Shown: positions 4,551 through 14,211 of the stretch, piece by piece
Layout: every line of letters starts with the position of its first letter
Numbering within the stretch: position 1 is the first letter of the stretch
Virus record (IMG/VR): IMGVR_UViG_3300032069_000226
Span: 1 to 21,028 of that record
Reading direction: 5' to 3' (one strand)
DNA: 21,028 nucleotides
From: a virus
The notes under the pieces: generated by a model
Databases searched by the model: none
What the model was told of the DNA's origin: nothing
What the model saw: only the letters and a program-made list of their open reading frames with translations
Made by a program: the position numbers and the translations under genes

Positions 4551-4904
4551 ATGCCAACAATTTCTCAGTTCTTTTGTCCGCATTGTTGTGTATTCATGCG
4601 CTGTATCCAAGTCGGCGTTATGGTCGAAGAGACAATGGACGGAGGCAAGCCCTACAAGCTCTGGAGTGCGGACATGTATAGATGTGACAAATGTAACACG
4701 CGCGTCATTGGTAACTTTGGGGCAACGCCATTTGCGGAGCATTTCCAGAAAGATTACAGAAGCATAAAAGCCACCCGTAATGAAGCCGGAGTCTACATTG
4801 AAGGTATTGGATTCGCGAGGTCGTACTCGACTAAGGGGAAAAAAAGTGGCAAGCCAACAAAAGAAAGGAGCAAAGTAGTATGGTATATCACTACCGAAGA
4901 CTGA
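4551..4904 (+). CDS. Zinc-ribbon protein whose 3' end runs into a duplicated segment
   Basis: A 117-aa protein. Start ATG 4551 lies behind AAAGGAGAATAA; a longer frame from 4497 overlaps the previous gene and is less likely. Cys pairs CPHC at residues 9-12 and CDKC near 46-49 form a four-cysteine zinc ribbon, followed by a basic region rich in Lys and Arg. The last 13 codons are made of sequence that recurs near the start and inside the DUF932-like gene (4864-4886 with 6718-6740; 4890-4924 with 7167-7201). The natural C-terminus was therefore probably replaced or extended by a rearrangement. Function unknown. Confidence 0.6.
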   Translation: MPTISQFFCPHCCVFMRCIQVGVMVEETMDGGKPYKLWSADMYRCDKCNTRVIGNFGATPFAEHFQKDYRSIKATRNEAGVYIEGIGFARSYSTKGKKSGKPTKERSKVVWYITTED

Positions 4905-4924
4905 ACACATCTTCAATCTACGGA
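4864..4924 (+). repeat. Duplicated fragments of the DUF932-like gene
   Basis: Bases 4864-4886 match 6718-6740 at 22 of 23 positions, including ribosome binding site and ATG. Bases 4890-4924 are identical over 35 bp to 7167-7201, inside the same gene. The two pieces are 3 bp apart here and over 400 bp apart at the source. This looks like the remains of an internally deleted second copy of that gene. Confidence 0.75.
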
Positions 4925-5300: not shown

Positions 5301-5780
5301 GAGCGAGCCATGAAAGAAGAGAAACCCATAAGGATAGAGCGAGCCACGAAGGATGAGAAACCCACCCCGATTGTGCGGAGTACCATAAGAATTAGTGAGC
5401 CACGTTTGAAGAGCAACCCAAAAGGAAGGAGCGAGCCATTCTAAATAAGCAACCCAAGCAGAGAGAGCGAGCCATGTGTCATGAGAAACCCAAGCTTAAG
5501 GAGCGAGCCAGTCCAGATAAGCAACCCAATCAGAGAGAACGAGCCATGATAAATGAGAAACCCAAAGTCAATGAGCGAGCCATCACAGATAAGCAACCCA
5601 AAAAGAAAGACCGAGCCACTAGGAATGAGAAACCCAACGTGAAAGAGCGAGCCAATTGGTAAGAGAAACCCACTGAGAATTAGCGAGCCAAGTTTTAGGA
5701 GAAACCCAAAAAAAAAGAGCGAGCCATGTGTCACGAGAAACCCAATTGAGAGGAGCGAGCCATGAAAGAAAAGCAAACCA
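5301..5780 (+). repeat. Alternating two-box repeat array with 8-bp variable spacers (18-bp grid)
   Basis: Box A (GAGCGAGCCA) and box B (GAGAAACCCA or AAGCAACCCA) alternate, each separated by exactly 8 bp of unrelated sequence, giving an 18-bp step and a 36-bp unit. I count 13 A boxes (nine exact) and 12 B boxes, plus a degenerate B at 5771. From 5411 to 5762 twenty boxes stay on the grid without one indel. Only 5365-5402 is irregular, with a 2-bp phase shift. In the centre B alternates between its two forms (5447, 5483, 5519, 5555, 5591, 5627), a 72-bp higher-order period. Spacers are A/G-rich and nearly all different. Both strands' frames are broken by stops within the array, so conservation is at DNA or RNA level. 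It could be a protein-binding array, origin, centromere-like site or guide-type RNA. Confidence 0.95.
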
Positions 5781-6475
5781 CAGACATCAAGCGTCCTTTT
5801 TTTCTTTTGCGCGCATTGAGCGATACGCGCGATAGACAGATTCAAAAGGCACGGATTCAGTTCAGCAACCGTCTCTCTGCAATCGAGCGCGGAACTGATC
5901 AGGCTGATGGACAACAAAAAATCTTGTGCGAAAAATATGTCAACTATTTCGACGCACTAGAGAAGGAACTAAATAGAGATATAAGTGACGCGCTCAAGGG
6001 AGTGCCAATTTATGCGAAGCTCATAGACATTAAAGGTATCGGGGATACCCTTGCGGCGAAGTTGATTGCAATGGTCGACATCAATGTGTGCAACACAATT
6101 TCAGCTTTGTGGCGCTATGCAGGCTACGGAGTTATCGACGGGAAAAGAGAGAAACCGATCAAGGGCGAGAAATTGCATTACAATGCCAGACTTAAAACGA
6201 CGTGCTTTCTGATCGGCACATCATTCCTCAGACTGCGTGATAAATCGCCTTATAGTTCCCTCTACTATGGACGCAAGGAATTCTACAGCAAGGCGCATAC
6301 AGATTGGACAAAGATGCACATTCATCGCGCGGCGATGCGATACATGATAAAACAATTCCTTGCCGATTTGTGGGTGACGTGGAGAGAACTTGAGGGCTTA
6401 CCTATTCGAGAACCTTATTGTTTTGAGAAGCAAGGCCATACAACTATGAGAGATAGGAAAAATTTCGGATGGTAA
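5762..6475 (+). CDS. IS110 C-terminal (Transposase_20)-like protein linked to the repeat array
   Basis: A 237-aa protein. Residues about 82-106 (IYAKLIDIKGIGDTLAAKL) form the helix-hairpin-helix typical of Transposase_20, the C-terminal half of IS110/IS1111 recombinases, followed by the family-like SALWRYAGYG and a helical tail with WTKMHIHRAAMRYM and LWVTWREL. The N-terminal 80 residues are helical or coiled coil. The RuvC-like DEDD domain that starts true IS110 enzymes is absent, and the conserved Ser-Gly after the YAG motif appears replaced by Asp-Gly, so a complete recombinase is unlikely. ATG 5762 is the end of the last box A, and its AGGAG (5751-5755) spans the last spacer and that box. 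It is probably a nucleic-acid binder acting on the array or its RNA. No terminal inverted repeats or insertion-sequence ends were seen. Confidence 0.7.
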   Translation: MKEKQTTDIKRPFFLLRALSDTRDRQIQKARIQFSNRLSAIERGTDQADGQQKILCEKYVNYFDALEKELNRDISDALKGVPIYAKLIDIKGIGDTLAAKLIAMVDINVCNTISALWRYAGYGVIDGKREKPIKGEKLHYNARLKTTCFLIGTSFLRLRDKSPYSSLYYGRKEFYSKAHTDWTKMHIHRAAMRYMIKQFLADLWVTWRELEGLPIREPYCFEKQGHTTMRDRKNFGW

Positions 6476-6734: not shown

Positions 6735-7859
6735 ATGGTACAAGAATCAGAACGCTTGCGTGATATCCTTCAGGAGAAGATCACGCAGAAAATAGAAGAG
6801 GCACAACGTCGGTCAAGACCGATCTTGGACAAAATCGAGAAGGACGGAACGATGTTAGAAGACTTCGTTGCTCCTCTCGGAGAACGAGGAAAAGTTTCCT
6901 TCGGTCTGAGTCAAGAGTACGGTCAAGGAGTCAGAATCCGAATAGGAGGAAGTGGCGAAGGATTCCGGCTTCATCCTCATGCCTCTGAACAAGCCGGAGG
7001 AAAACTTGGCATCCCCGGCGCATACATTCGGAATCTCGTTGAAGGTCAGCAGCCTTGGCAACGAGAACTCGCAGCTCGAACGTTGGACGATCACGCTCGA
7101 AACGCGACTCGTCAGAGAATCCTCGTCAGGACGATCGGAGACGAGGCTCGGGGAATTCTTTCCGACCACTACCGAAGACTGAACACATCTTCAATCTACG
7201 GGGCATTTATCACGAAAGTCAAACAAGCGGGCGGCATGGTTCTCGACGCTTTCGCCGATGACTTGAGATCGTGGATCGAGGCGATCATTCCTCAAATTCT
7301 CGAAGTCCCAACGGCGATGAACTCGACGGTTTACATGACCTTCGGAGCGCGTATTAGCTCATCGGATTTCGGGAATGGAGCACTTGAGGTTCGAGCGTTC
7401 TTCCTGGAGTCATGGTGCTTGAACGCTCATGTGCGAGAGAACGTCTTGCGGCAAGTTCACCTCGGGAGTCGATTGCCCGATGAGATGGAACTTTCAAGAA
7501 AGACGTATGAACTCGACACACGGACAATGGCTTCAGCCGTTCACGATATTACGGGTCAGTTGTTCTTGCCGGACGGAATTAAGAAAGGAGCCGAGACGGT
7601 TCAGAAAGCCGGCAATACGCCAATCGACATCATTGAGGAAGTAAAGAGGCTTCCAAAGGTCGGTGTATTGAAGGGTGAAGTTGATGAGGTCGTGAAAGTT
7701 TTCACAAATGGCAGACCTTCGGACGGCGTTGCAGGAGGCAACAGTTTGTGGAAACTATCGCAGGCTGTCAGTGCCGTCGCTCGGGTTGCCCAACCAAGGA
7801 GGAAGAGAGAACTTGAGGAAATCTCAGGCTCTCTCCTTGAATCAGTCAATGGAAAATAA
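6735..7859 (+). CDS. DUF932-like phage protein
   Basis: A 374-aa protein behind AAAGGAG. Residues about 132-158 (RTIGDEARGILSDHYRRL and on) resemble the core RxxxGxxRAxLSDRYxxxD of DUF932/phage-plasmid-like proteins, a family common on phages and plasmids and of unknown biochemical role. The N-terminal 50 residues are helical. A Gly-rich strand region follows (about 50-95), then the core, then a long alpha/beta C-terminal half with a basic end. It is the last gene before the strong terminator, so it closes the left transcription unit. Two of its segments were copied to 4864-4924. The family assignment rests on motif resemblance only. Confidence 0.6.
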   Translation: MVQESERLRDILQEKITQKIEEAQRRSRPILDKIEKDGTMLEDFVAPLGERGKVSFGLSQEYGQGVRIRIGGSGEGFRLHPHASEQAGGKLGIPGAYIRNLVEGQQPWQRELAARTLDDHARNATRQRILVRTIGDEARGILSDHYRRLNTSSIYGAFITKVKQAGGMVLDAFADDLRSWIEAIIPQILEVPTAMNSTVYMTFGARISSSDFGNGALEVRAFFLESWCLNAHVRENVLRQVHLGSRLPDEMELSRKTYELDTRTMASAVHDITGQLFLPDGIKKGAETVQKAGNTPIDIIEEVKRLPKVGVLKGEVDEVVKVFTNGRPSDGVAGGNSLWKLSQAVSAVARVAQPRRKRELEEISGSLLESVNGK

Positions 7860-8057: not shown

Positions 8058-8429
8058 ATGTTCGTCCTGCGAAAGTCATTCAGTTTTGAGGCAGCGCATC
8101 GGCTCGTTCATCACGACGGAAAATGCGCGAGGCTTCACGGCCACTCATGGAAGTTGACTGTCGAACTCCGCGGGAAGGAACTTTATGACGGTGGCCCGAA
8201 ACGATCTATGCTTATTGACTATGGTGACATTACTGCCATTGTCAAACCTTTCCTCGATTCTTTTCTCGACCACCACTATCTCAACGAGACGTTGCAAACA
8301 GATTCGCCCACAAGTGAGTTCGTTGCTCAATGGTTGCACGGTCAGTTGAAAGGCCGATTTCCAATAAAGTTTCTTCTGGCAATCACGATTAAAGAAACCT
8401 GCACCTCGAGTTGCCGCTATGACGGTTAG
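8058..8429 (+). CDS. queD: 6-carboxy-5,6,7,8-tetrahydropterin synthase (QueD)
   Basis: QueD converts dihydroneopterin triphosphate to 6-carboxytetrahydropterin, the second step of 7-deazaguanine synthesis. The 123-aa length is typical of this T-fold family. Zinc ligands are His14 (FEAAHRL) and His27/His29 (LHGH). The catalytic Cys23 lies four residues before the LHGH His. IDYGD, DHHYLN with the catalytic-type Asp/His, the helix SPTSEFVAQWL and the pterin-anchoring Glu of IKET complete the active site. The gene overlaps queE by 11 nt. No Shine-Dalgarno is visible before ATG 8058. It is the first gene of the operon after the promoter at 7946. Confidence 0.95.
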   Translation: MFVLRKSFSFEAAHRLVHHDGKCARLHGHSWKLTVELRGKELYDGGPKRSMLIDYGDITAIVKPFLDSFLDHHYLNETLQTDSPTSEFVAQWLHGQLKGRFPIKFLLAITIKETCTSSCRYDG

Positions 8430-8994
8430 CGAAATCGTTTACAGTCTCCAGGGCGAAGGTGCACGTGCCGGAGAACCGTCAATCTTCATCCGCCTAGCGG
8501 GGTGCGATCTCGTTTGCTCGTTTTGCGACACCGAGTTTGAAAGTGGAGAAGAGTTGACAGTGCAACAAATTCTCTCTCACATAGAGAAGTTTCCATGCCA
8601 CTGGATTGTCTGGACGGGTGGAGAGCCGTCATTGCAGTTGACAGAAGAAATTGTTTCCTTCTTCAAGGCAGCAGGTTACTCGCAAGCCATCGAAACGAAC
8701 GGCGGTCATCGCGTTCCTTCAAACCTTGACTGGGTGACGGTTTCTCCAAAGGTAGCGGAACACATCCTTCAAAAGAACTTCAACGGGAACATTACTGAAC
8801 TGAAGTATGTCCGTCATGCCGGCCACCTATCGGTTCCCAAGCCGAAGGTCGAAGCAAAATACTATTTCCTCAGTCCGATGTTTGACGGTCTTCGAGTCAA
8901 CGAGGTCAACCTAAAACACTGTATCGATCTTTGTCTTAAACATCCCCAATGGAGATTAACAATTCAGCAACACAAGTTCTGGAAAGTGCCGTAA
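8419..8994 (+). CDS. queE: 7-carboxy-7-deazaguanine synthase (QueE)
   Basis: A radical-SAM enzyme that contracts 6-carboxytetrahydropterin to 7-carboxy-7-deazaguanine. The family opening IVYSLQGEGARAGEPSIFIR is followed by C29xxxC33xxC36, the [4Fe-4S] ligands, then DTEFE. WTGGEPSLQ binds S-adenosylmethionine and AIETNGG follows. The C-terminal QWRLTIQQHKFWKVP is the usual QueE ending. The length of 191 aa is normal for the shorter bacterial and phage type. It overlaps queD by 11 nt and folE by 46 nt, so translation is probably coupled. A divergent paralogue lacking the cysteines lies at 11114-11713. Confidence 0.95.
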   Translation: MTVSEIVYSLQGEGARAGEPSIFIRLAGCDLVCSFCDTEFESGEELTVQQILSHIEKFPCHWIVWTGGEPSLQLTEEIVSFFKAAGYSQAIETNGGHRVPSNLDWVTVSPKVAEHILQKNFNGNITELKYVRHAGHLSVPKPKVEAKYYFLSPMFDGLRVNEVNLKHCIDLCLKHPQWRLTIQQHKFWKVP

Positions 8995-9503
8995 AAGCAA
9001 TCCTCGCTCAGTTCGACGACCCCGCGCGTGAAGGGTTGAAAGACACTCCCGCTCGTGTCTCACGGATGTATCAAGAGCTCTTGACTCCTGGAACAGTTGA
9101 CTTCACGACGTTTCAATCGAACGGGTATGATGAACTGATCGTGTCACGAGACATCCCGTTTTATTCTCTTTGTGAACATCACCTGTTACCTTTTTTTGGA
9201 ACTTGTACGATTGGTTACTTGCCTGCCGAAAGGATTGTTGGAATCTCAAAGTTAGCCCGGGCAGTAGATTTTTTCTCACATCGATTGAACACACAAGAAT
9301 ACATGACGCAGAACATTGCCAAATTTATAGATGAGAGGCTCGCGCCACGAGGCATTGGAGTCATCGTTCAAGGTCGTCATCTTTGTCAGGAAATCCGAGG
9401 TATTAAACGGCGTAGTGAGATCGTCACGAGTTGTCTTCTCGGAACGTTCCAGACCGATCCTGCGTTGAGACAGGAATTTTTGAAATTCGTCAATAGAACA
9501 TGA
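8949..9503 (+). CDS. folE: GTP cyclohydrolase I (FolE)
   Basis: FolE opens GTP to dihydroneopterin triphosphate, the entry step for both folate and 7-deazaguanines; here it supplies QueD. The 184-aa protein has the full active site: SLCEHHLLPF with the zinc Cys and the two His, the central GISKLARAV, then RLNTQEYMTQNIA, and GRHLCQEIRGIK with the second zinc Cys. REGLKDTPARV near residue 28 is the usual N-terminal motif. ATG 8949 lies inside queE with no clear Shine-Dalgarno, so it relies on coupling. The stop overlaps the next start by 4 nt. A phage copy bypasses host control of the pathway. Confidence 0.95.
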   Translation: MEINNSATQVLESAVKAILAQFDDPAREGLKDTPARVSRMYQELLTPGTVDFTTFQSNGYDELIVSRDIPFYSLCEHHLLPFFGTCTIGYLPAERIVGISKLARAVDFFSHRLNTQEYMTQNIAKFIDERLAPRGIGVIVQGRHLCQEIRGIKRRSEIVTSCLLGTFQTDPALRQEFLKFVNRT

Positions 9504-11713: not shown

Positions 11714-12774
11714 AAGTTATTTATTTGCCAATCGAGCCTCTGGAAGAACGCTATACCGCGCAATGGTACAAGTGGTTCCCTGAGGAAATGAAAGCGATGG
11801 AGATAGAGTACATTGTCATTGATGGAGAGCCGTTGACAAAGGAGGTAGAGGTCGGGACATTTCTGGACATCAACTCGACCTTGCATTACAAAGCAACGCA
11901 ACTCCAGAGGATTGCAGCAATGTTCCATCGGAAGGAGATCTATAATGGAGATGTGTTCCTTGTTGCAGACATTGAGTTTTGGGGCATCGAAAGTATTCGT
12001 TACCTTGCAGATTTGAACGGCATCAACGTAAAACTCTGTGGATTCTGTCATGCGGGAAGTTACACACGTGAAGACTTCATGGGGAAGTGCTCATCCTATG
12101 CTCAATGGTTCGAAAGAGCATGGTTCAACGTCTTTGACAAGATTTTCGTTGGCTCTCAGTACCACAAAATCCAAATGATTCAAAAGCGGCAAGTAAATCC
12201 ATGCAAGGTCATCGTCACCGGGAACCCTTACCGGGTAAAGGATTTAAGGCTCAAGTTCAGTAACGTAGAAAAAATCAACCGCGTCATCTTGACGAATCGA
12301 CCCGACGATGAGAAACGACCTGAGGTGTCGCTTATGGTCATGGCAGCACTGAAACGGCACCATTCCGATTGGCAATTTATAGTCACGACGAGTCGCAAGA
12401 CATGGGGCAAAAGCGCACTGCGAGAGTTCGTCTTATTCTTTGCTGACCAAGGAATCGTTGTTCTCCGTGAAGGTCTATCAAAAGATGAATATCTGCAACT
12501 CCTTGCAGAGTCGCGGGTTATGATTAGCAACAGCATTGAAGAAAACTTCGGCTATTGTGTTCTTGAAGCGATGGCAGTTAATACGATTCCAATCGTTCCG
12601 AACGCCTATTCTTACCCCGAACTAATTTCTGACCCCCGGTGTTTGTTCAACTCACTCAGTGAGCAGTTATTGTTAGTGAAGCGCGCAATAGAAAAACCGT
12701 TCGACGTGTGGGGTTATGCGATGAAATACGATGACAGCCTCAAGGCCATCCTCAAGGAGACGATCACGGCATGA
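11710..12774 (+). CDS. GT-B glycosyltransferase (family 4-like)
   Basis: A 354-aa protein with a two-lobed GT-B layout. The N-terminal acceptor lobe reaches to about residue 185, where VTGNPYRV marks the linker. The C-terminal nucleotide-sugar lobe carries LSKDEYLQLLAESRVMIS and then EENFGYCVLEAM, the EX7E motif of group 1 transferases, followed by VNTIPIVPNAYSYPELI. It lies between the QueE-like gene and DpdA, with 4-nt overlaps on both sides, so a role in glycosylating the modified base or its precursor is likelier than a surface-sugar role. That is inference from context. The sugar donor cannot be read from the sequence. Confidence 0.8.
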   Translation: MKVIYLPIEPLEERYTAQWYKWFPEEMKAMEIEYIVIDGEPLTKEVEVGTFLDINSTLHYKATQLQRIAAMFHRKEIYNGDVFLVADIEFWGIESIRYLADLNGINVKLCGFCHAGSYTREDFMGKCSSYAQWFERAWFNVFDKIFVGSQYHKIQMIQKRQVNPCKVIVTGNPYRVKDLRLKFSNVEKINRVILTNRPDDEKRPEVSLMVMAALKRHHSDWQFIVTTSRKTWGKSALREFVLFFADQGIVVLREGLSKDEYLQLLAESRVMISNSIEENFGYCVLEAMAVNTIPIVPNAYSYPELISDPRCLFNSLSEQLLLVKRAIEKPFDVWGYAMKYDDSLKAILKETITA

Positions 12775-13571
12775 AATACTTTGTTGTCTCGAACGATCGG
12801 AGGAAAGAGCGAGTATACCTTGCTCCCGCAGGAGCAAAGAACATCCTCAGTAGTTTTTACTACATCAACAAGGGCTATCAGCCCTGGGCACTTGTCCGTG
12901 AGCCTTCGATCAGTCTAATGATTGACTCCGGTGCACATAGTTTTCGCATGGCACGAGGCAAGGCGTCACGATTTTCTCTGACGAAGTTCGCGGAGTATTA
13001 TATCGAGTTCATTCGGAAGTTTCAGGGATTGTTCCATTCGTTCGCCGAGTTAGATCTGGAAGAAGTCGTGGGTCAAGTAATCTGCGACAGGTGGTTTGAG
13101 CAGTTGAAGGCGGTTGCTCCGAAGCTACGCTGCATTCGTGTGTGGCATCCCTGGCACGGATTTGATCGATGGAAACTATATTGTAAACAGACAGACTATG
13201 TCGGGATCGGAGGAGGTTGGAACACACGCAATCGCGTTTCTCGTTCGATATTGACGAAACTTGTTCACTATGCCTATGAACGTGGGGTCAAGGTACACGC
13301 CTTTGGTTGCACGTCGGTGAACTTTTTGTATGACATTCCTTTCTACTCCGTTGATTCATCGAGTTGGGTTGCGGGAGAAATGTATGGCAAAGCATACGAA
13401 CTCAAAGGCGGACAATTAGTGCAGCACGACCTCAAAAACAACACTGGAACGTTGAAACAGTTGAACGAATACAGCGAAATCACGTTGCAAAACCTCAAGG
13501 TATTTTTGGAGTTTGAGACTTTTCTCACAGAACTCTGGAAAGAGCGAGGAATTGTCTGGAATGAGACCTGA
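12771..13571 (+). CDS. dpdA: DpdA-like DNA deazaguanine transglycosylase
   Basis: A 266-aa relative of tRNA-guanine transglycosylase in the phage DpdA group, which exchanges guanine in DNA for a 7-deazaguanine. Motifs run in the expected order: LMIDSGAHSF (Asp52, base-binding/catalytic region), ELDLEEVVG (93-101), a HPWHG segment, YVGIGGG (143-149, substrate loop), VKVHAFGCTS (173-182) and FYSVDSSSW (191-199, Asp195, probable nucleophile region). It has no tRNA-specific PUA-type extension. Translation is coupled: ATG 12771 overlaps the glycosyltransferase stop. With folE, queD and queE upstream, it makes the operon a DNA-modification pathway, probably protecting phage DNA from host restriction. 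Confidence 0.85.
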   Translation: MKYFVVSNDRRKERVYLAPAGAKNILSSFYYINKGYQPWALVREPSISLMIDSGAHSFRMARGKASRFSLTKFAEYYIEFIRKFQGLFHSFAELDLEEVVGQVICDRWFEQLKAVAPKLRCIRVWHPWHGFDRWKLYCKQTDYVGIGGGWNTRNRVSRSILTKLVHYAYERGVKVHAFGCTSVNFLYDIPFYSVDSSSWVAGEMYGKAYELKGGQLVQHDLKNNTGTLKQLNEYSEITLQNLKVFLEFETFLTELWKERGIVWNET

Positions 13572-14211
13572 ACCTACGATCGTTCGATTGCCGATTGAAA
13601 GCCTTGTGCCTGCAGACTGGAACTGGAAAACGAAAGGCGAGAACGAACGCGTCGAGAAATTCATTCGCAGCATCGAACACGATCGGTCAGCAGGAGTTCT
13701 TGCGGTTCGGGAATTAGGGAATAAAAAGTATGAAGTCATTGACGGGAACCATCGCCTGACCGCATTGAAGCAGTTGAAGTGGAAAGCCGTACCATGTGAG
13801 AACTTCGGCGCATTGTCTCTTGCAGAAGCAATGACGACGGCGCGAAGGAGAAACTTTGACTGGTTCGAAGACGACATCTTCAAATATGCGAAGGCATTCC
13901 AGAGCGTTACTGAGGAGATACCCGTGGCAGAACTGGCAATGTTCATGCCTGAGACCCGAAATGAGCTTGAAACTCTCGCGCACTTTACAGATTTTTCATG
14001 GCAGAAGCACGATGCCCTGGGAGAGACTTCAGAGAAGACGACATTCGTTGTAACACTCAAAGTTGACGCTCCGAATCACAAACTCTGGTTGAAGCTCCTC
14101 GGAAGTTACTATAATCGGTTAGGGGTTGAAGACCCAGCGCATGTGTTCATTGACCTTATAAAAGAAAAACTCCAAAAGTTCAACGGGCAAAAGAAAAAGA
14201 ATAGACCATGA
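13561..14211 (+). CDS. ParB/Srx-type nuclease-like protein
   Basis: A 216-aa protein. I choose ATG 13561 (MRPEPTIVRLPIESLVP), overlapping dpdA by 11 nt, over a frame start at 13513 inside dpdA. The N-terminal 90 residues are a ParB-N/sulfiredoxin-like domain with the VIDGNHRLTALKQL motif. The rest is helical with a final alpha/beta segment and a Lys-rich end. Phage ParB-like proteins often precede terminase genes and may nick DNA, hydrolyse a nucleotide or assist packaging. A link to the modified DNA is possible. It overlaps the small terminase start by 4 nt. Confidence 0.75.
   Translation: MRPEPTIVRLPIESLVPADWNWKTKGENERVEKFIRSIEHDRSAGVLAVRELGNKKYEVIDGNHRLTALKQLKWKAVPCENFGALSLAEAMTTARRRNFDWFEDDIFKYAKAFQSVTEEIPVAELAMFMPETRNELETLAHFTDFSWQKHDALGETSEKTTFVVTLKVDAPNHKLWLKLLGSYYNRLGVEDPAHVFIDLIKEKLQKFNGQKKKNRP

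What the first reader, a model, noticed from the sequence alone, without database searches (positions are those of the whole stretch)
5301..6475. Two-box repeat array with 8-bp variable spacers, joined to an IS110-like protein: a possible new DNA- or RNA-guided phage element
Boxes A and B alternate on an exact 18-bp grid with 8-bp spacers that are almost all different. Box bases are kept even at codon third positions while spacers are free, and no reading frame on either strand spans the array, so the conserved unit is DNA or RNA. The adjacent gene encodes a protein like the C-terminal half of IS110 recombinases. Full-length IS110 enzymes use bridge RNAs with short guide segments of roughly this size (established). 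The inference is that transcribed A-N8-B-N8 units, or the DNA itself, are bound by this protein, with spacers perhaps acting as short guides. Competing ideas are an iteron-type origin, a centromere-like site or a decoy array. The + strand is strongly purine-rich, which would also favour R-loops.
Basis: partly seen in the sequence, partly recalled or inferred. Interest (0 to 1): 0.93.

Follow-up and report, generated by a model that had tools for sequence, protein, structure and literature searches.

The report
Phage TIGR-TasA RNA-guide array
The repeat array and its IS110-like neighbour gene are a phage-borne TIGR-Tas system (a CRISPR-like but unrelated kind of short paired RNA guides plus one guide-binding protein, published in 2025), here in the form without a DNA-cutting domain, so it is a new example of a recently known system and not a new kind.

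Summary
Two 10-nt boxes, GAGCGAGCCA and (G/A)AG(A/C)AACCCA, alternate with 8-nt spacers on a 36-bp period from 5301 to about 5793, with one slip at 5373-5392. The 237-aa protein scores 188 bits against NCBI's TIGR-Tas model (cut-off 100), matches TasR and TasH in the PDB by sequence and by predicted fold, and lacks any N-terminal nuclease. Of 79 related loci, 71 carry a ~36-bp array within 1.2 kb of the gene. The window's edge repeat is one base from that of the characterised Salicola phage CGphi29 array. The base pairs expected in the edge repeat co-vary across 58 arrays. Likely mechanism: processed 36-nt tigRNAs guide a TasA dimer to DNA sites paired on both strands, giving binding and bending without cutting. 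Targets remain unknown; no self-target was found in 29 phage contigs. Two unusual points: the last guide unit overlaps the tasA start codon, and some guide pairs are conserved between diverged related phages.

The parts
5301..5372 (+). TIGR sub-array 1: two units, edge GAGCGAGCCA at 5301 and 5337, loop GAGAAACCCA at 5319 and 5355, 8-nt spacers
5373..5392 (+). grid slip: aberrant edge-like GTGCGGAGTACCA plus a 7-nt remnant
   Evidence: read directly
5393..5752 (+). TIGR sub-array 2: ten regular 36-nt units (edges at 5393, then every 36 nt to 5717; loops 18 nt later)
5753..5793 (+). last unit: edge 5753, spacer A TGAAAGAA, loop AAGCAAACCA 5771, spacer B CAGACATC, truncated edge AAGCG 5789-5793; overlaps the tasA start
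   Evidence: loops of the RAGNAAACCA type occur in relatives
5762..6475 (+). tasA: 237-aa solo Nop-domain TIGR-associated protein, no nuclease domain
   Evidence: NCBIfam NF052498.1 188.4 bits, cut-off 100; PDB 9mty E 2.7e-23 and TasH 21kl E 4.4e-19; fold match to TasH/TasR
5748..5755 (+). Shine-Dalgarno-like GAGAGGAG just before ATG 5762, made of the last bases of a spacer and the first of the last edge repeat
   Evidence: read directly from sequence

Best explanation
It is a TIGR-TasA system of a tailed phage. The 5301-5793 array is transcribed towards tasA and cut in the edge repeats into about a dozen 36-nt tigRNAs (half edge, spacer A, loop, spacer B, half edge). A TasA dimer holds each tigRNA by the box D/box C motifs of the edge and loop repeats. 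Spacer A pairs with one strand of a DNA target and spacer B with the other strand next to it. As TasA has no HNH or RuvC domain, it should bind, unwind and sharply bend the target and not cut it, probably to block transcription or replication of a competing element or of a host gene. Shown here: the array, the protein family, the fold, the co-variation, and the conservation of gene and array together. Inferred from published work on relatives: transcription, processing, dual-strand targeting. Guessed: the biological target and effect.
For: NCBIfam TIGR_Tas_endo 188.4 bits, cut-off 100. phmmer hits to TasR 9mty and TasH 21kl, with no other PDB sequence at E up to 10. AlphaFold model pLDDT 86, pTM 0.81; Foldseek top hits TasH 9w04 (E 1.2e-12, TM 0.81) and TasR 9mty (TM 0.71), then the IS621 recombinase at E 8e-5. 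71 of 79 related loci have a 33-38-bp-period array within 1.2 kb of tas; of the 8 misses, one lies at a contig end whose other end has the array, and two show short arrays by eye. Salicola phage CGphi29 (the SpTIGR of Faure et al.) has edge AAGCGAGCCA, loop AAGACAACCA and 8-nt spacers. The pairs expected for tigRNA edge repeats: position 4-7 is C-G in 47, T-A in 10 and neither in 1 of 58 arrays; position 3-8 is G-C, G-U or A-U in all 58. Box D base 2 is the same in edge and loop in 54 of 58. Specific A+B guide pairs are shared between diverged phages (17 pairs at 3 or fewer mismatches, against 1-3 for re-paired controls), as expected if the pair is the functional unit.
Against: No expression or processing data. 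No target found: none with 1 or fewer mismatches in the window, none above re-paired controls in own genomes or 1.55 Mb of related phage DNA; three window guides gave only scattered background-like hits in IMG/VR. The usual terminator after the array is absent here. The published processing was shown for other Tas proteins, not this one.
Confidence: 0.93

Rival explanations
1. The array is a DNA site (iteron origin, centromere-like or decoy array) bound directly by the protein.
For: Purine-rich direct repeats on a fixed 18-bp grid beside a DNA-binding-like gene; a ParB-like gene lies at 13513-14211 in the same phage.
Against: Repeats co-vary as RNA base pairs across 58 arrays; arrays sit up- or downstream of tas (24 and 61 of 79 loci); the protein's nearest solved relatives are RNA-guided; spacers are conserved as pairs, which a DNA iteron would not need.
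Confidence: 0.03
2. The array is a translated repeat protein or a relic of a coding region.
For: A 158-aa minus-strand ORF and a 62-aa plus-strand ORF cross parts of it.
Against: No frame spans the whole array; it is explained fully by the TIGR architecture seen in 71 of 79 loci, where spacers differ between loci.
Confidence: 0.01
3. A decayed, no longer working TIGR locus (TasH derivative that lost its nuclease).
For: No nuclease domain; one grid slip with an aberrant edge.
Against: Intact ORF; nine relatives at 45-55% identity align over the same Nop region only, with arrays, so the nuclease-free form looks like a stable lineage; 13 units with near-perfect boxes.
Confidence: 0.03

Closest known systems
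TIGR-TasH of Salicola phage CGphi29 (SpTIGR; Faure et al. 2025, PMC12045711)
   Same: Phage-borne; edge repeat differs by one base (AAGCGAGCCA against GAGCGAGCCA); A-rich loop repeat; 8-nt spacers; 36-nt unit; homologous Nop domain (28.6% identity).
   Different: TasH has an N-terminal HNH domain (about 70 aa) that the window protein lacks; its array is downstream with a terminator, here upstream and running into the tas start codon.
TIGR-TasA with dual-repeat array (e.g. Flavonifractor plautii FpTIGR in PMC12045711)
   Same: Solo Nop protein plus dual-repeat array.
IS110/IS621 bridge-RNA recombinases
   Same: Shared Nop-like RNA-binding fold (Foldseek E 8e-5); short guides.
   Different: No DEDD catalytic domain; NF033542 score 18.5 against cut-off 140; multi-unit array in place of one bridge RNA.
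Archaeal/eukaryotic box C/D snoRNP (Nop5)
   Same: Nop fold (weak match 1nt2), box C/D logic.
   Different: No K-turn or L7Ae, no fibrillarin recruitment domain; the characterised Tas relatives target DNA.
Microcystis phage Mvi-JY20 locus (PP438412)
   Same: 35% identical Tas without a nuclease; dual-repeat array with edge ATGCGAGCCA.
   Different: Array is downstream of the gene and ends in a hairpin with a T-run.

Membership tests
TIGR-Tas (dual-repeat) | Two alternating 8-12-nt repeats separated by short spacers (9 nt as a rule, 8 in SpTIGR, up to 12), 36-nt unit, several units, next to the tas gene | tested here: met
   10-nt repeats, 8-nt spacers, 36-nt period, 13 units directly upstream of the gene
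TIGR-Tas (dual-repeat) | Tas-family Nop-domain protein | tested here: met
   NF052498.1 188.4 bits, cut-off 100; TasR/TasH best PDB matches by sequence and fold
TIGR-Tas (dual-repeat) | Box D/box C motifs shared by edge and loop repeats, with co-varying pairs in the edge | tested here: met
   CCA box C present; box D reads AG here where TasR has UG; pairs 3-8 and 4-7 co-vary over 58 arrays
[quoted passage not shown]
   Truncated edge AAGCG at 5789-5793 is present; no terminator found after it; several upstream arrays of relatives also run into the tas gene
TIGR-Tas (dual-repeat) | Array transcribed and processed into 36-nt tigRNAs bound by Tas | not testable with these tools
   Needs small-RNA sequencing
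TIGR-Tas (dual-repeat) | Tandem-spacer targeting of both DNA strands | not testable with these tools
   Target searches found nothing above controls
TasA subtype | Solo Nop domain without HNH or RuvC | tested here: met
   Homology starts at residue about 15; the TasH N-terminal region is absent
IS110 recombinase | N-terminal DEDD/RuvC catalytic domain and full-length IS110 model match | tested here: not met
   NF033542 18.5 bits, cut-off 140; no N-terminal domain
TIGR TasA-TasParB operon | parB-like gene in an operon with tasA | tested here: not met
   ParB-like ORF lies at 13513-14211, about 7 kb away, beside the terminase genes

The most novel reading that the evidence does not exclude
Array maturation also controls TasA synthesis. 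The last tigRNA unit (5753-5793) contains part of the ribosome-binding region and the first codons of tasA, so Tas-dependent cutting of that unit would remove the start of the tasA message and give negative feedback. Together with guide pairs kept across diverged phages, this would mean that a TIGR-TasA array is a regulated set of fixed regulatory guides and not an immune memory.
Probability: 0.2. Interest if true: 0.6.

Novelty: new member of a known kind. Interest (0 to 1): 0.4.

Why it matters
TIGR-Tas is a recent, PAM-free RNA-guided DNA-targeting family whose natural role, targets and array origin are open questions (PMC12045711). The window adds a nuclease-free phage example with an array fused to the tasA start. 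The comparison made for it (637 guide units in 61 loci) shows that guide pairs are inherited as whole units, that some survive between phages whose array-and-tas region is only about 65-73% identical in DNA while others turn over, and that no matches to a phage's own guides were found in its own genome. These facts narrow what the guides can be for.

Tried and rejected
Self-target search of the window's guides in both possible orientations and gaps 0-2: nothing with 1 or fewer mismatches, counts equal to shuffles. Self-targets for 265 guides in 29 phage contigs: same as re-paired controls. Cross-phage targets in 1.55 Mb: 3 exact hits, against 0 and 3 in the two controls. Window guides in IMG/VR: 15, 14 and 8 scattered hits over three gap lengths, taken as background. 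A 72-bp higher-order period in the window array (alternating AAGCAACCCA and GAGAAACCCA loops): spacer similarity at two units is not significant (p 0.07-0.16). Conserved guide TGTTCAGG/ACATGTCT of related phages: five gap-0 sites in 147 genomes of the phylum of L087, all in Ser/Thr kinase YMSPEQ motifs, but MSPEQ is a common peptide and also accounts for the gap-0 hits in IMG/VR, so kept only as a lead. Three other conserved guides gave no concentration. Rfam: no match. The genome-contig scan gave one relative only, in a Cloacimonadota MAG. The window has no near relative in the phage collection by megablast, so spacer turnover could not be studied for the window itself.

Full report
Observation. 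The window holds a regular array from 5301 to 5793: edge repeats GAGCGAGCCA and loop repeats GAGAAACCCA or (A/G)AGCAACCCA alternate with 8-nt spacers. Identity at lag 36 is 0.74 over 150 nt, against at most 0.41 in shuffles. One slip at 5373-5392 divides it into two units and eleven units.

Protein. The 237-aa product of 5762-6475 hits NCBIfam NF052498.1 (TIGR_Tas_endo) with 188.4 bits against a cut-off of 100, and IS110 with 18.5 against 140. Sequence search of the PDB returns only TasR (9mty) and TasH (21kl and others). An AlphaFold model built on ten sequences (pLDDT 86, pTM 0.81) matches TasH and TasR first, then the IS621 recombinase, then Nop5 weakly. The protein starts where the Nop domain starts; the HNH region of TasH is missing, so it is a TasA. 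The NCBI model name says endonuclease, but no nuclease domain is present in this member.

Relatives. 78 loci from IMG/VR and one from a Cloacimonadota MAG encode relatives. 71 of the 79 have a 33-38-bp-period array within 1.2 kb: upstream in 24, downstream in 61, both in 14. Of the 8 misses, L018 lies at a contig end whose other end (L019) carries the array, and L043 and L048 show short arrays by eye. Known phages with the gene include Salicola phage CGphi29, the SpTIGR of the original paper (L003), and Microcystis phage Mvi-JY20 (L002); both arrays were read directly. The window's consensus edge and loop repeats are identical to those of L030, L050, L052 and L053. Actinobacteriophage relatives (L005, L007, L008) lack dual repeats and appear by eye to have stem-loop material upstream instead, as published for other Tas clades.

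RNA features. Across 58 arrays, edge positions 4 and 7 are C-G in 47 and T-A in 10; positions 3 and 8 are G-C, G-U or A-U in all; loop positions 3 and 8 are G-C in 57. The second base (box D) is the same in edge and loop in 54 of 58. This is the box C/D pairing and the extra edge pair seen in the TasR structure, and it argues that the repeats act as RNA. The arrays were found partly by an edge-repeat pattern, but that pattern did not require these pairs.

Mechanism. By the published targeting rules each 36-nt tigRNA pairs with both strands of adjacent sites, here 8 nt each. The 8-nt 3' overhangs reported for TasR imply a target of the form spacer B followed by the complement of spacer A; this orientation is my deduction. 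Without a nuclease, TasA should bind and bend DNA.

Targets and array evolution. No self-targets were found in the window or in 29 phage contigs with 265 guides, and no excess in 1.55 Mb of related phage DNA. Among 637 guide units, A+B pairs are shared between phages L026, L029, L033, L034 and L051, whose array-and-tas regions are mostly about 65-73% identical in DNA (about 85% for L033/L034); 17 pairs agree within 3 of 16 bases, against 1-3 for re-paired guides. In the close pair L033/L034 some units are conserved while others have been lost or replaced. So guides are inherited as whole units, some under constraint, others turning over. One conserved guide matches Ser/Thr kinase YMSPEQ codons in five genomes, and the two differences between its versions are synonymous in that frame. 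This is suggestive only, since MSPEQ is a common peptide.

Array and gene start. In the window the Shine-Dalgarno-like GAGAGGAG straddles the junction between the second-last spacer and the last edge repeat, and the ATG of tasA lies at the end of that edge repeat, so the last guide unit covers the first eleven codons. In relatives with upstream arrays (L014, L016, L030) the truncated last edge also lies close before a ribosome-binding site and start codon. Coupling of array processing to tasA expression is therefore plausible but untested.

Verdict. A genuine TIGR-TasA locus: new member of a known kind.

Noticed in passing
L026:4774-5496, L029:4753-5437, L033:4731-5486, L034:2825-3220, L051:4754-5763: Identical or nearly identical tigRNA guide pairs (both 8-nt spacers) occur in arrays of diverged phages, far above re-paired controls; implies conserved targets.
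   Followed up: partly
L253-L257 (genomes of the phylum of L087): The target form of the conserved guide TGTTCAGG/ACATGTCT (with the L026 variant) matches the YMSPEQ codons of Ser/Thr kinases in five genomes; the differences between guide versions are synonymous in that frame.
   Followed up: partly
window 4863-4922: Partial copy of the gene at 6735-7859 (phrog_1362): its ribosome-binding site and start (23 bp, 96%) joined to an internal 34-bp stretch (100% identical to 7167-7200). The TIGR-tasA module lies between this remnant and the intact gene, perhaps a trace of its insertion.
   Followed up: no
window 8058-9503 and 12771-13571: QueD-, QueE-, FolE-like genes and a queuine tRNA-ribosyltransferase-like (possibly DpdA-type) gene: probable 7-deazaguanine modification of the phage DNA.
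   Followed up: no
window 5301-5318 and 5753-5770: The first and last array units share 18 identical bases (edge plus spacer TGAAAGAA), although their second spacers differ; spacer A of the last unit also encodes the first tasA codons.
   Followed up: no
L007, L008 (Mycobacterium phages BPBiebs31 and Scowl), upstream of the tas gene: Annotated 'transposase' or 'DNA binding' genes of many mycobacteriophages are relatives (L007 matches the TIGR-Tas model) and have inverted-repeat-rich, rapidly diverging DNA upstream that looks like stem-loop TIGR arrays; host and many phage genomes are known, so a good place to look for targets.
   Followed up: no
window 13513-14211: ParB-like protein near the terminase genes; not in an operon with tasA.
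   Followed up: no
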